Assembly (NCBI GenBank): GCA_938015595.1
Contig: CALLPI010000010.1
Span: forward strand, 300,122 to 364,121
Direction: 5' to 3'
Source of the DNA: an uncultured Saprospiraceae bacterium
GTDB taxonomy: Bacteria > Bacteroidota > Bacteroidia > Chitinophagales > Saprospiraceae
Length of the DNA stretch: 64,000 bases
The position numbers were made by a program, and so were the translations under genes. Position 1 is the stretch's first letter. Every line of letters begins with the position of its first letter. Shown piece after piece: positions 653-64,000 of this stretch. Under the pieces are notes generated by a model. That model saw only the letters and a list, made by a program, of their open reading frames with translations, searched no databases and was not told the DNA's origin.

Positions 653-1129
653 CTGCAGAATTGATCAGAAGCACACGTCAAAAAGCACCGATAGAGACTA
701 TTGCCTGATGACATGGACGCACTCAAGATACTTCCGCAAGGTTATAAGGTTTTGTACACAACATCTGCAAATCATGCACAAAACTTGGCGTTGCTCGGTA
801 TAGAGCTTTAAGCGTCATTACCATAGGTACAAAAGCGCCAAATATACTGCCAGCTATGGCCGCAGCCTCAGCAGGCTAAACAATGCAGGCGATACCCTGC
901 TGGTAAGCTGAATGTGAAAGCGCAGCGCTGAGATGGTCCCGATCAGCGAGTCATCAGCATTCCGCAATACCGTGTGGAAGAGTCTCATACTCTGGAAGAA
1001 TAGCAACGACATTATTTACCGTAAGGCGCCCGTTTATTAATTGATCGTAAATTTTTACACACGTTTTTTGCCCACGAATTAATTCTCAATATTTTTCGAC
1101 GTTCTTTTCGCATTTAAATAATTAATCCA
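653..1129. other. Intergenic stretch with palindromic element and possible gene remnant
   Basis: No convincing intact gene lies here. The stretch holds one copy of the dispersed palindromic repeat (about 727-806). It then has a short segment whose plus-strand translation contains LSRLNNAGDTLLVS before a stop, which could be a decayed piece of a secreted-protein domain. The last 100 bases (1030-1129) are AT-rich and probably carry the promoter of the next gene, although no clear TAnnTTTG box was found. Confidence 0.5.
727..806 (-). repeat. Palindromic intergenic element, copy 1 (inverted orientation)
   Basis: The right arm TGCACAAAACTTGGCG and its flank TTGCTCGGTATAGAG match the reverse complement of the left arm of the copy at 21983. 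The left arm (GATACTTC, then AAGGTTTTGTACA) is more diverged. It lies between the VWA gene and the next plus-strand gene. Boundaries were set by eye from the similarity to the other copies. Confidence 0.6.
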
Positions 1130-14650: not shown

Positions 14651-14727
14651 CTATACTGGGTAACGCCAAGGTTTTGTGTACAATTCACAGGCGTTGTGCA
14701 CAGAACCTTGACGAGCTGAAGTGCATA
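14651..14727 (+). repeat. Palindromic intergenic element, copy 2
   Basis: CTATACTGGGTAACGCCAAGG begins the left arm and TGCACAGAACCTTGACGAG lies in the right arm; the cores pair with about three mismatches over 17 positions. It shares outer flanks (TATACTG and GAGCTGAAGTGCATA) with the copy at 21983. It starts immediately after the copA stop codon and could form a hairpin in the 3' untranslated region. Confidence 0.65.
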
Positions 14728-21982: not shown

Positions 21983-22057
21983 CTTTATACTGTGCAACGC
22001 CAAGTTTTGTGCATGGTTTGCGGATGTTGCACACAAAACTTGGCGAGTCGAAGTATA
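21983..22057 (+). repeat. Palindromic intergenic element, copy 3 (best conserved)
   Basis: The inner arms CGCCAAGTTTTGTG (21998-22011) and CACAAAACTTGGCG (22032-22045) are perfect 14-bp inverted copies. The outer flanks (CTTTATACTG and GAAGTATAA) also pair partially, giving an imperfect palindrome of about 75 bp. It lies between the nadC stop and the nuclease start, both on the minus strand, so it would be transcribed as a hairpin if the genes are co-transcribed. Confidence 0.8.
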
Positions 22058-59066: not shown

Positions 59067-62000
59067 CTACTTCACCACTGTCATGGTGCGAGTAGCAGTA
59101 TAACCTGCTGTTTTGAGTGTGTATCGGTATGCACCTGGCGCAAGGCTGCCGGCTTCAAACCATACGGTACTGCGGCCTGCCGGATAGTTACCTCGTGCAA
59201 GATGGACTACCCTACCCAACTGGTCAGTGACGACCAAGTCAGCATCCATGGCTTCTGGCAAGTCAAAACTGATGGCCGTTTGGCCGAAGAACGGGTTGGG
59301 CGCATTCTGATGCAGGAAGTATCCGTCAGTTTCTATCACGCTTACATCAGTAATACCTTGCGGCTCAAAGCGCAAGATGATGCCCATGCGCTCTTCGGCG
59401 CTGTTGTAGGCTTCCGACTGAATCCACTGCGAGCGCACCTCCATTAAACCTTCCAAGCCAGATACTGGTTGCAAGGCTCTCAAGCGTATGGTAAAGAGCA
59501 CCTCGTCAGGCGAGGCACTAGCGCCTGTGCCGGCCATGTTGAACCAACTGATGCTGATGCGCCCTTGCGATGCCTGAGCAGTACCCGCTGCCACCGTAGC
59601 AAAAGGCAAAGCAGCTGCTGGGTCAAAGCCGTCAAAGGCAAAGTATTGCGGATCAAACCACAGCCCCAACTGATAGTTGGTGATGTCGTGAAAGTTGCTG
59701 CTACGCACCGGAATACTGATGATCTGACCCTGGCTTGCTGATTTGTCAGCAGCTACCAGTTCTAGCTCAGGCGCAGTACGCGGCTCCAAGCTGCCATCCT
59801 GTAAGTTGTTGGGGTTGGCATGGCCAAGAATGTCGCCTACTTTCACGCCGGTGAAGTTAGCCAGTGTATCGCCCATGACCACCATACTGTCGCAGTTGGG
59901 ATACGGGAACACATTGTAGGCATCGAAAACATCCGGCATGTCGTAGCTATTCGACACAAACACCCACGACGGGCAATGCTCAAAGCTATCGCGCACGCCA
60001 ATAATGAGTTGCTGAATGAGGAATAGGTCCAACGTAGTGAACGCGCCATTGCAATTGGCATCACCAGCAATGATCTGATACGGCGATTCGATCTGCGGTG
60101 GGTTCATACCCAGGATGAAGCGCTGACCGATGAATAGGGCATAAGTAGAGAGCCCATTGGTCGGGTTGCCATACTTGGAGGGGCGTATGGTCATCATTTC
60201 GCCCGCTGGCACATCAGGTGCTTCATAGTAGCCATTTTCGTCGGTCATCTCCATCATGTCCATGTGGTCATTGCCGATGTGCACCTCCGCCTCGGCTACC
60301 GGAGCACCCCAGTAGGTGAGAATTTCGCCCGATACCTGGGCTGGCGAAATAATGGCAGCACTACCTGGGAACGTCACGTAGGGCCTTTCTACGGCTTGGC
60401 CGTTTACTATACAAGTTACTTCCACGGGCAGCGGCGATTCCACAATGCGAATCGGCGTGGACTGCCCCGGCGATCCTGTTAGTTGTACCACCAGGTAGAA
60501 CAGTATCTGGTTTTGCTGTAAGGGTACGCCCTGGCCAGTGTTGGAGAAAAAGTTGAATGTCTTGTTCGCCGAATTGAACTGCGGCGCAATGGCTGCTGGC
60601 AAGATCGAGACGATGTTAGCCACCGACGGGTTTTGCACCAGCAGTGAGCCAGCCAGCGAAGCCAGATTGCTGCAGTTGCGTATGCGCACTGGCACCAGGA
60701 TGTTTTGTCCAGCCAGGCCGCTAGCCTCGCCTACATCCAAAATCGCGTAGTTAGAGGGCACCTGGATGTTGATCTTGAAGCAATATGTAGTAGTACCGCA
60801 AGGATTGCTCACAATCAGGCACACATTGTACACGCCATCCTGCGCATAGGTATGTATAGGGTTCACCGCCGTGGAGGTGGCGCCATCGCCAAATTGCCAT
60901 AAGTAGCTACCAGGCGACGAATGGTTGGTGAAACTGACTGTAAGCACATTGACGCTGAAAGTGAACGACGATATCGGCGCCGAATAGCCGGCATTAAAGC
61001 TGACCAACTGATAGCGCGTACAGCCCGTGGCATCCGTCACGTGGATATTATACGCTCCGGGAGGCAACCCAAAAATGTTGTACGACGACGTGTTGAACGT
61101 AGCCGAACCACTCATTGGCCCTGCCCAAGTGATGTTGAACGGCCCTGTACCGCCTGATATATTGATCTGCAAAGAGCCCTGGAAACCACAGCCGCCCACA
61201 TTGGGCACGATGCTCATCGTGAAGCCAGTTTCGTTATATACCTGGCGCGTATTGATCTCATGACAACCGGCAGCATCATCTACCCGCACCGTATAGTTAC
61301 CGGTTTGCAGGTTCGGGATGGTGAAGGTATTGCCTGTGATGGTCTGGTTGCCGCTGCCATAGATGCTCGTCCAGGTGATGACATATGGCGGCGCATTGCC
61401 GGCTATCTGTACGGTGATAGAGCCTGGGTTGCCACAGGTATTATTGTTAGCCGTGAGTGTTACATTCAGGTTGTCGGGCGCATTAATCAGTGTGACGGTG
61501 TAAGTCGCTTCGCAGAGGTCAAAATCCCGAATCGTCACCGTATAGGTACCTTGCGGCAGATTAGGAATATCGAAGTCGGTAGAAGAAGTTGTAATACTAC
61601 CCGACTGCGGCCCCGTCCAGGTGATGACAAACGGCCCCTGGCCTTGTAGAATAGTAATCCAGATAGACCCCGGCACTCCGCATACACCATTGATAGCTGA
61701 AACATCAGCCACCACTCCGCCCGCATCAGAGTTGTTGATCATCTCCACGTCCATGGCGGTGCAGCCCTGCGAATTAACCACCTGAATCATATAGATACCG
61801 CTGGGCAGGTTGGTAATGTCGTAGGTAGAAGCCGATGTGGTAGCCGAACCGCTGGCCGGTCCTGTCCAGGTAATCATAAATGGCCCGCCGCCACCAAACA
61901 TACGCACTTGTAAATAGCCCTGCGCCCCGCAGAAGCCATGGAATGGGAAGGCGTTGATGGTGAATACTGTACCTGTATTGTTCAGCGTAGCTGTAGTTGT

Positions 62001-64000
62001 AGCGGTGCAGCCGTTGGCACTCGTTACGCTGATATTGTATGTACCACTGGCCAGGTTATTGAGGGTATGCGTAGTACCTGTGATAGATATACTGCCACTG
62101 GCCGGCCCCGACCACGTGATGGCATAAGGACTGGTGCCACCTATCAGGTTAACCGTAATAGAGCCGGGCATGCCACAAATGCCGTTATTGGGTACAGCTG
62201 TAATACTTACGCTGCCCGTTGTCGTTACTACTATCGTATCGGTATCTATACATCCTCTTGAATCTGTACCCGTCACAAAGTATGTACCCGCCGGAGCATT
62301 AGCAATGGTGAAACTGCTGGCAGAAGTAGTGGTGGAACCATTTACCGGCCCAATCCAGTTCAGCGTGTAAGGTGCATTGCCTGATACGATGTTCACTGTG
62401 ATGAAGCCAGGCTGTGCACACACGCCATTAACTCTGGTCAAGGTGATTTCCATATCTGCCTCTGGAGAGCTGAGCGTAGAAGTTTGCGTTTCTACACAAC
62501 CTGTGGCATCCGTTACTGAAATCTGGTATGTGCCTGGCGTGAGGCTATTGATGGTAAAGCTATTATTAGAGGTGGTGGCGCTACCCGACTCCGGACCACT
62601 CCAATTAATGGTATAGCCAGCATTGCCCCCGCTGATGATCACCTGTACCGATCCTTCCTGGCCGCAACTGCCTGTGCTGGCAGTGGTGGTAATCTCCAGA
62701 TCAGTTTCCGCCACGTTCACCGTAGCTGAGGTAGAGTTAGCACAGTTGCTAGCATCCGTTACAGTAAAGGTGTAAGTGCCTTGTCCCAGGTTGGGTACAG
62801 TGAAACTCGTACTGGAGGTGTTCGCACTACCCGAAGCCGCGCCCGTCCAGGTTATGGCGTAGGGGGCTGTGCCGCCACTGATGGTCAGTTGAACCTGGCC
62901 GGGGTTACCACACAAGCCGTTCACTGGCGTAGCAATCACAGCCAGTGTATTGGCCGAGTTGGTCAGCGTCACTGTTTGGGTACTAACGCAACCTTGCGAT
63001 GTAGTAGCAGTGATAGTGTAAGTACCACTGGGCAGGTTGGAAATGATATAACTGCTGGCACTGGTATTGGCCGAGCCATTGACCGCCCCTGTCCAGTTGA
63101 TAGCAATAGGCGGCACGCCCCCATTAAAGGTCAGTGTAATGGAGCCATTTTGACCGCACACGCCTGGAGTAGCCACGGCCGTCATATTGAATGCCTGTCC
63201 GTTGTTGAGCGTTGCATTCTGCGTAGCCGTGCAGTTCTGGCCGCTGCTGACTGTCACGGTATAAGTGCCAGAAGGCAGGTTGGGAATGGTAAAACTACCA
63301 CTTGCCGCCGTAGCGTTGCCGGAAACCGGACCAGACCAACTCACCGAATACGGCGCGGCAGCACCGCTGATAGTGAGTTGGATAGAACCGTTCTGACCAC
63401 ATACGCCGCTCACTCCTGTAGCCGTAAAGGTAATCCCTGCACCGTTGGTCAGCGTCACAGTCTGCGTGCGCGTGCAGCCCTGTGCATCTGTCACTGTGAT
63501 GGTGTAGGTGCCGCTCGGCAGATCAGTGATGTTGTAGAAGGCGTTGCTCGTCGTAGCACTGCCGCTCACCGCCGGCCCAGTCCACTGTATCTGGTACGGC
63601 GCTGTACCGCCCGTGAAGCCAAGATGTATCTGGCCGTTCTGGCCGCAGGTGCCCGGCACCGGCACAGCAGTCACTTGCAGGTTGTTGGCACCGTTGGTCA
63701 GCGTCACAGTCTGCGTGCGCGTGCAGCCCTGTGCATCTGTCACCGTGATGGTGTAGGTGCCGCTCGGCAGATCGGTGATGTTGTAGAAGGCGTTGCTCGT
63801 CGTAGCGCTGCCGCTCACCGCCGGACCAGTCCACTGTATCTGGTACGGCGCTGTACCGCCCGTGAAGCCGAGATGTATCTGGCCGTTCTGGCCGCAGGTG
63901 CCCGGCACCGGCACAGCAGTCACTTGCAGGTTGTTGGCACCGTTGGTCAGCGTTACGGTGCGGCTGAAGGTGCAACCTTGCGAGGTCACCGTCACTGTGT
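59067..64000 (-). CDS. Giant SprB-repeat adhesin with PKD, cohesin and dockerin-like domains and T9SS sorting domain, 5' end missing
   Basis: At least 1640 residues; the frame is open at the window edge. Twelve full repeats of 75-90 residues, plus part of one, have the SprB-like pattern ending LPSGTYTITVTDAQGC. Next come a PKD domain (YLWQFGDGATSTAVNPIHTY), a cohesin-like module (AILDVGEASGLAGQNILVPV), a Cna-B-like module (DENGYYEAPDVPAGEM), a dockerin-like stretch (GDANCNGAFTTLDLFLIQQL), a second cohesin-like module (ISIPVRSSNFHDITNYQLGL), and a type A sorting domain (LHQNAPNPFFGQTAISF to RTMTVVK). It is a surface-displayed or released adhesin. SprB repeats are known from gliding adhesins. 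The terminator at 58992 follows. Confidence 0.9.
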   Translation of the reverse strand, partial: TVTVTSQGCTFSRTVTLTNGANNLQVTAVPVPGTCGQNGQIHLGFTGGTAPYQIQWTGPAVSGSATTSNAFYNITDLPSGTYTITVTDAQGCTRTQTVTLTNGANNLQVTAVPVPGTCGQNGQIHLGFTGGTAPYQIQWTGPAVSGSATTSNAFYNITDLPSGTYTITVTDAQGCTRTQTVTLTNGAGITFTATGVSGVCGQNGSIQLTISGAAAPYSVSWSGPVSGNATAASGSFTIPNLPSGTYTVTVSSGQNCTATQNATLNNGQAFNMTAVATPGVCGQNGSITLTFNGGVPPIAINWTGAVNGSANTSASSYIISNLPSGTYTITATTSQGCVSTQTVTLTNSANTLAVIATPVNGLCGNPGQVQLTISGGTAPYAITWTGAASGSANTSSTSFTVPNLGQGTYTFTVTDASNCANSTSATVNVAETDLEITTTASTGSCGQEGSVQVIISGGNAGYTINWSGPESGSATTSNNSFTINSLTPGTYQISVTDATGCVETQTSTLSSPEADMEITLTRVNGVCAQPGFITVNIVSGNAPYTLNWIGPVNGSTTTSASSFTIANAPAGTYFVTGTDSRGCIDTDTIVVTTTGSVSITAVPNNGICGMPGSITVNLIGGTSPYAITWSGPASGSISITGTTHTLNNLASGTYNISVTSANGCTATTTATLNNTGTVFTINAFPFHGFCGAQGYLQVRMFGGGGPFMITWTGPASGSATTSASTYDITNLPSGIYMIQVVNSQGCTAMDVEMINNSDAGGVVADVSAINGVCGVPGSIWITILQGQGPFVITWTGPQSGSITTSSTDFDIPNLPQGTYTVTIRDFDLCEATYTVTLINAPDNLNVTLTANNNTCGNPGSITVQIAGNAPPYVITWTSIYGSGNQTITGNTFTIPNLQTGNYTVRVDDAAGCHEINTRQVYNETGFTMSIVPNVGGCGFQGSLQINISGGTGPFNITWAGPMSGSATFNTSSYNIFGLPPGAYNIHVTDATGCTRYQLVSFNAGYSAPISSFTFSVNVLTVSFTNHSSPGSYLWQFGDGATSTAVNPIHTYAQDGVYNVCLIVSNPCGTTTYCFKINIQVPSNYAILDVGEASGLAGQNILVPVRIRNCSNLASLAGSLLVQNPSVANIVSILPAAIAPQFNSANKTFNFFSNTGQGVPLQQNQILFYLVVQLTGSPGQSTPIRIVESPLPVEVTCIVNGQAVERPYVTFPGSAAIISPAQVSGEILTYWGAPVAEAEVHIGNDHMDMMEMTDENGYYEAPDVPAGEMMTIRPSKYGNPTNGLSTYALFIGQRFILGMNPPQIESPYQIIAGDANCNGAFTTLDLFLIQQLIIGVRDSFEHCPSWVFVSNSYDMPDVFDAYNVFPYPNCDSMVVMGDTLANFTGVKVGDILGHANPNNLQDGSLEPRTAPELELVAADKSASQGQIISIPVRSSNFHDITNYQLGLWFDPQYFAFDGFDPAAALPFATVAAGTAQASQGRISISWFNMAGTGASASPDEVLFTIRLRALQPVSGLEGLMEVRSQWIQSEAYNSAEERMGIILRFEPQGITDVSVIETDGYFLHQNAPNPFFGQTAISFDLPEAMDADLVVTDQLGRVVHLARGNYPAGRSTVWFEAGSLAPGAYRYTLKTAGYTATRTMTVVK
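63441..63938 (-). repeat. Two near-identical 249-bp tandem repeats in SprB-type gene
   Basis: The segment ACCGTTGGTC recurs at 63441, 63690 and 63939, a period of 249 bases or 83 residues. The two full units encode the same 83 residues (NNLQVTAVPVPGTCGQNGQ as first part) and differ by only a few silent bases, such as ACTGTG against ACCGTG. Other repeats in the gene are far more diverged. Confidence 0.92.

What the first reader, a model, noticed from the sequence alone, without database searches (positions are those of the whole stretch)
21983..22057. Dispersed family of about 75-80 bp palindromic intergenic elements
Three clear copies occur in the window (727-806, 14651-14727, 21983-22057), all between genes and all with the core CGCCAAGTTTTGTG paired with CACAAAACTTGGCG plus partially paired outer flanks (TATACTG and GAAGTATA). 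Copy 1 is in inverted orientation. The pattern resembles REP/MITE-like families, but I do not recognise this one. Three copies in 64 kb suggest many in the genome.
Basis: seen in the sequence. Interest (0 to 1): 0.62.

Follow-up and report, generated by a model that had tools for sequence, protein, structure and literature searches.

The report
Orphaned 72-bp IS630-type mini-transposon family
The palindromic repeats are about 125 copies of a 72-base "mini-transposon" whose ends match those of IS630 transposons found in related bacteria, so they are ordinary genomic hitchhikers whose driving enzyme is no longer found in this genome.

Summary
All three window copies are real, and the genome holds about 125 copies of one 72-bp unit, TATACTGAGCAACGCCAAGTTTTGTGCATGATTTGCGGATGTTGTGCACAAAACTTGGCGAGTCGAAGTATA. 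Nearly all are full length, lie between genes, and have sharp TATA...TATA edges. The unit was not found in two congeneric species, other relatives, plasmids or phages; exact core patterns gave no hit in 84,980 species or viral contigs.

Each end is a 28-bp inverted repeat, TATAC(T/C)-N12-GTTTTGTGCA. In other genomes of the same taxonomic family this end class bounds complete 1.14-1.15-kb insertion sequences encoding an IS630 transposase, including intact copies in a congener. One relative carries both an intact IS630 and 16 near-identical 106-bp mini-elements whose end matches it in 27 of 28 bases. The window's own genome has no IS630 transposase, so its family is an orphan. Copies average 87% identity to consensus, and the stem shows no excess of compensatory changes, so there is no sign of a conserved RNA. 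The closest known case is the pneumococcal RUP element. New member of a known kind.

The parts
21986..22057 (+). 72-bp element, near consensus; 28-bp ends TATACTGTGCAACGCCAAGTTTTGTGCA and TATACTTCGACTCGCCAAGTTTTGTGTG (reverse complement of the right end); 16-nt loop TGGTTTGCGGATGTTG
   Evidence: Read directly; model R1 102.3 bits, E 5.7e-25
14652..14727 (+). Diverged copy, starting 2 bp after the stop codon of a P-type ATPase gene; both arms carry an extra matching base (AAGG/CCTT)
   Evidence: Read directly; R1 61.4 bits, E 5.4e-14; flanking gene by Pfam
727..802 (-). Damaged copy: left end and loop intact, right arm disrupted by a short insertion or duplication
   Evidence: Read directly; R1 66.1 bits, E 2.9e-15
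21986..21987 (.). Left TA, the presumed target-site dinucleotide (the other is 22056-22057)
   Evidence: Sharp consensus boundary at TATA...TATA over 126 copies; same TA...TA flanks on four complete IS630 copies; duplication itself not shown by an empty site

Best explanation
[quoted passage not shown] Each is little more than two 28-bp terminal inverted repeats around a 16-bp centre, which is why it looks like one long hairpin. An IS630-family transposase recognised the outer TATAC(T/C) and the inner GTTTTGTGCA blocks and moved the element by cut-and-paste into TA sites, tolerated mainly between genes. The transposase source is no longer found in this genome, so the copies are now immobile and decaying. 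Shown here: copy number, fixed length, sharp TA-bounded ends, end-class match to complete IS630 elements in the same genus and family, absence of a detectable IS630 transposase at home. Inferred: that this transposase clade did the moving, TA duplication, and that transposition has stopped.
For: About 125 full-length copies. The end pattern TATACTN{8,24}GTTTTGTGCA occurs 50, 30, 32 and 21 times in G000, G020, G022 and G025 against control counts of 0; in nearly all of these matches the spacing is N12, giving a 28-bp end. Complete element in G022: 1141 bp, both ends of this class, 347-aa transposase (NF033545 IS630 E 9e-57; PF13358 E 4e-24). Five intact transposase copies in congener G002; four have both ends fetched (TATACCTCAAGCCGCTAGGTTTTGTGCA and TATACCTCGCGCCGGGAGGTTTTGTGCA), all flanked by TA. 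G022 has 16 near-identical 106-bp MITEs with an end 27/28 identical to its intact IS630. More distant IS630s in the same taxonomic family have other inner ends, and the GTTTTGTGCA class forms one side of the transposase tree, support 100/100. No IS630 transposase in the window's genome. Not detected in two congeners.
Against: No transposase-bearing copy with the exact own-genome ends was found; the 12-nt middle of each end differs from every IS630 seen. No empty site was found, so TA duplication is consistent but unproven. The assembly is in 27 contigs, so a parent element could be hidden in a gap.
Confidence: 0.9

Rival explanations
1. REP/BIME-type repeats spread by a REP-associated tyrosine (Y1) transposase.
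For: Small, palindromic, intergenic and numerous.
Against: No PF01797 protein in the genome, while the same search finds it in control genomes. The ends are TA-bounded inverted repeats with IS630 signatures.
Confidence: 0.03
2. A conserved functional hairpin (RNA regulator, bidirectional terminator or protein-binding site) kept by selection at many genes.
For: Very stable fold (z -7.8 as RNA); 31 of 121 copies with both neighbours called lie between convergent genes.
Against: No excess of compensatory changes: 17 against 14.0 +/- 3.3 expected in the inner stem, and none in the 35 best copies. No sense/antisense bias (33 to 35). Not detected in congeners. No Rfam match. No T-run terminator found at the copy tested. 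Individual copies could still have been co-opted.
Confidence: 0.05
3. Ends belong to an IS66-type element, because one half copy (G000:C3:12951) sits beside an IS66 transposase remnant.
For: Adjacency in one locus.
Against: The other IS66 remnants lack these ends. A similar stretch without the end occurs at C20:251-332, so the half copy is best read as one interrupted by other DNA.
Confidence: 0.01

Closest known systems
RUP (Repeat Unit of Pneumococcus), a MITE linked to IS630-Spn1
   Same: About 107-110 copies per genome, intergenic, short, TA at the termini, inverted-repeat ends resembling a resident IS630; described in PMC2229807 and PMC3049150
   Different: Unrelated sequence and host; RUP is 107 bp and its IS630 is still present, whereas here the unit is 72 bp, almost wholly inverted repeat, and no IS630 transposase is found in the genome
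Correia/NEMIS elements of Neisseria
   Same: Short TA-ended inverted-repeat elements of about 24-bp ends in many copies (PMC2229807)
   Different: Different sequence, lengths (about 107 and 155 bp) and host; no sequence relation tested or claimed
IS630 insertion sequences of the same taxonomic family (G022, G002, G185, G153, G210)
   Same: Same 28-bp end class TATAC(T/C)-N12-G(T/A)TTTGTGCA and TA flanks
   Different: They are about 1.14-1.15 kb where complete and encode a 340-360-aa transposase; the 12-nt middle of the ends is different

Membership tests
IS630-type MITE | Short non-coding element with terminal inverted repeats | tested here: met
   72 bp, two 28-bp imperfect inverted repeats, no room for a gene
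IS630-type MITE | Ends match those of an IS630-family element | tested here: met
   Same outer TATAC(T/C) and inner GTTTTGTGCA at the same spacing as complete IS630s; the 12-nt middle differs for the own-genome family
IS630-type MITE | TA target-site duplication | tested here: inconclusive
   All consensus ends are TA...TA, with no longer duplication in the flanks; no empty site found
IS630-type MITE | Dispersed multicopy and lineage-specific, implying past mobility | tested here: met
   126 places in the own genome, none detected in two congeners
IS630-type MITE | Mobilised in trans by an IS630 transposase | not testable with these tools
   Needs a transposition assay; no IS630 transposase found in the genome now
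REP/BIME with RAYT | Cognate Y1 (RAYT) transposase in the genome | tested here: not met
   No PF01797 match at E <= 0.001
Structured RNA family in Rfam | Match above a gathering score | tested here: not met
   No match in the window
Structured RNA kept by selection | Excess of compensatory changes in the stem | tested here: not met
   Observed counts do not exceed shuffles

The most novel reading that the evidence does not exclude
Several copies have both outer arms of one kind (left-left or right-right), and a few carry matching extra bases in both arms. This may show that hairpin-templated repair during replication rewrites one arm from the other, making a large dispersed repeat family a natural record of template-switch events in a bacterium.
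Probability: 0.35. Interest if true: 0.4.

Novelty: new member of a known kind. Interest (0 to 1): 0.3.

Why it matters
It gives a Bacteroidota example, with several sister families, of the IS630-to-MITE relation best known from the pneumococcal RUP. The end rule TATAC(T/C)-N12-GTTTTGTGCA allows these elements to be annotated, and it separates genomes where MITE and transposase coexist (G022) from those where the MITE is stranded (the window's genome). Annotators should not read these hairpins as terminators or regulatory RNAs without further evidence.

Tried and rejected
IS66 as parent: suggested by one half copy beside an IS66 remnant, rejected because the other IS66 remnants lack the ends and a similar non-IS66 stretch occurs without the end at C20:251-332. 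RAYT: no Y1 protein. Conserved RNA: no covariation excess. Wider hosts: two exact patterns in 84,980 species' contigs and one in viral contigs gave no match, and BLAST of plasmids and phages gave none. Empty sites: flank searches within fetched DNA and joined-flank reading frames in sister copies gave no usable empty site. Papers: no hit for IS630 MITEs in Bacteroidetes in the open library.

Full report
Observation. The three window copies exist at 727-802 (minus), 14652-14727 (plus) and 21986-22057 (plus). Copy 1 has a disrupted right arm and copy 2 is diverged; copy 3 is close to consensus. A core pattern has 103 hits in the 3.77-Mb genome against 16 for the backward control. BLAST with copy 3 scored 40 of 117 candidate places as copies. 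A covariance model built on 35 copies gives 149 matches, which reduce to 126 distinct places once the two strands of the same palindrome are merged; almost all cover the whole model.

Anatomy. The consensus is 72 bp: TATACTGAGCAACGCCAAGTTTTGTGCA (28-bp left end), a 16-bp centre TGATTTGCGGATGTTG, and the 28-bp right end TGCACAAAACTTGGCGAGTCGAAGTATA. Conservation stops sharply at TATA on both sides, with only a weak T/A preference outside. Folded alone it is a long hairpin (RNA -35.7 kcal/mol, z -7.8). Copies average 87% identity to consensus (range 67-99%), with 76% transitions; part of this comes from two loop variants, GCGG and ACAG. Inner-stem double changes that keep pairing number 17 against 14.0 +/- 3.3 in shuffles, and the 35 best copies show none above chance. 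The hairpin therefore looks like a by-product of adjacent inverted ends, not a conserved RNA.

Setting. By a simple ORF-based gene call, 122 of 126 copies are intergenic and the other four overlap the edge of an ORF, although about 88% of the window is coding. There are 68 copies between tandem genes, 31 between convergent and 22 between divergent genes, with no sense bias among tandem pairs (33 to 35). In the window, copy 3 lies between a non-specific endonuclease gene and a quinolinate phosphoribosyltransferase gene, and copy 2 begins 2 bp after the stop of a P-type ATPase gene.

Where else. BLAST of 149 genomes (the window's own and its relatives) found the unit at home and one 79% match in G020. 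With the covariance model, the two congeners G001 and G002 had none, while G020, G022 and G003 gave weak matches. Those weak matches were the key: they are other palindromic elements with the same ends, for example a 106-bp element in G022 starting TATACTCAACGGCAATAGGTTTTGTGCA. The pattern TATACTN{8,24}GTTTTGTGCA occurs 30, 32, 21, 7 and 5 times in G020, G022, G025, G003 and G167, and 50 times at home, with control counts of 0 in those genomes; in nearly all of these matches the gap is 12, giving a 28-bp end.

The parent. In G022 two such ends face each other 1141 bp apart. Between them is one 347-aa gene that matches the IS630 transposase model NF033545 (E 9e-57) and the DDE_3 domain PF13358 (E 4e-24). 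Searching 180 genomes with this protein gave five intact 45%-identical copies in the congener G002, and relatives in G185 (58%), G210 (67%, cut off by its contig end) and G153 (46%). In four of the five G002 copies both ends were fetched; all are of the same class, TATACCTCAAGCCGCTAGGTTTTGTGCA and TATACCTCGCGCCGGGAGGTTTTGTGCA, each flanked by TA. More distant IS630s (28-37% identity) in the same taxonomic family have TATAC or TATA outermost where ends were found, but other inner sequences. A tree of seven transposases puts the GTTTTGTGCA class on one side of a fully supported branch. In G022 the 106-bp mini-element's end matches the intact IS630's end in 27 of 28 bases, and its copies are nearly identical, so that pair looks recently active.

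At home. The window's genome has no IS630 transposase by profile or by translated search with this protein, and no Y1 transposase. The family is therefore an orphan, consistent with its decayed copies. The assembly has 27 contigs, so a hidden parent is possible but would have to sit entirely in a gap.

What is not shown. No empty site was found, so TA duplication rests on the TA...TA boundaries and on established knowledge of IS630. One sister copy in G022 (L222) lies inside a gene that, from memory, resembles a toxin-antitoxin-type nuclease; a length-only scan of reading frames covered it together with all other sister copies before this was acted on, but its joined flanks were not printed and are not used as evidence. 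No IS630 with the exact own-genome ends was found, so the specific parent is unknown.

Side observation. About 8 of 126 copies carry the same outer arm on both sides (left-left, for example C2:102917 and C5:167557; right-right, for example C8:165418 and C5:122039), and a few have matching extra bases in both arms (C5:122039; window copy 2). Homogenisation of inverted-repeat arms by template switching is a described process (PMC8604942). This is suggestive only, because single-base compensatory changes are not in excess.

Place among known things. The closest case is the pneumococcal RUP: 107 bp, about 108 copies, TA-ended, with ends like IS630-Spn1 (PMC2229807, PMC3049150). This family works the same way by inference, and it is a new, sequence-unrelated member of the IS630-MITE kind.

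Noticed in passing
G000 copies at C2:102917, C5:167557, C4:393562 (left-left) and C8:165418, C5:122039, C4:41490, C11:60170, C8:281472 (right-right): Copies whose two outer arms are of the same kind, and copies with matching extra bases in both arms (C5:122039, window 14652-14727), suggesting arm-to-arm template switching.
   Followed up: partly
L016 (G000:C3:12951) and L082 (G000:C20:251-332): Half of one element borders an unidentified stretch of about 100 bp fused to an IS66 transposase remnant; 82 bp of that stretch recurs at 84% near the end of contig C20 without the element's end, with TTGCTCAGTATA (the element's left-end 12-mer) nearby.
   Followed up: partly
G020, e.g. L258 1009-1269, L259 1006-1568, L260 1151-1523: A relative with many IS630-type ends enclosing elements of about 126 to 563 bp with no clear transposase; it looks like a diverse non-autonomous population.
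   Followed up: no
L275 (G001:C68) 439-521: A single palindromic element of about 83 bp with the same end class in a congener that lacks the 72-bp family.
   Followed up: no
L257 (G022:C557): The intact IS630 sits at a junction: a transposase-like gene (recognised from memory) on one side and what looks like a Tn3-type transposase start on the other, so its flanks may record a rearrangement.
   Followed up: no
window 61117-63980: A large repetitive gene region with 243-249-bp repeats, including two adjacent 249-bp copies at 98% identity (63439-63687 and 63688-63936).
   Followed up: no
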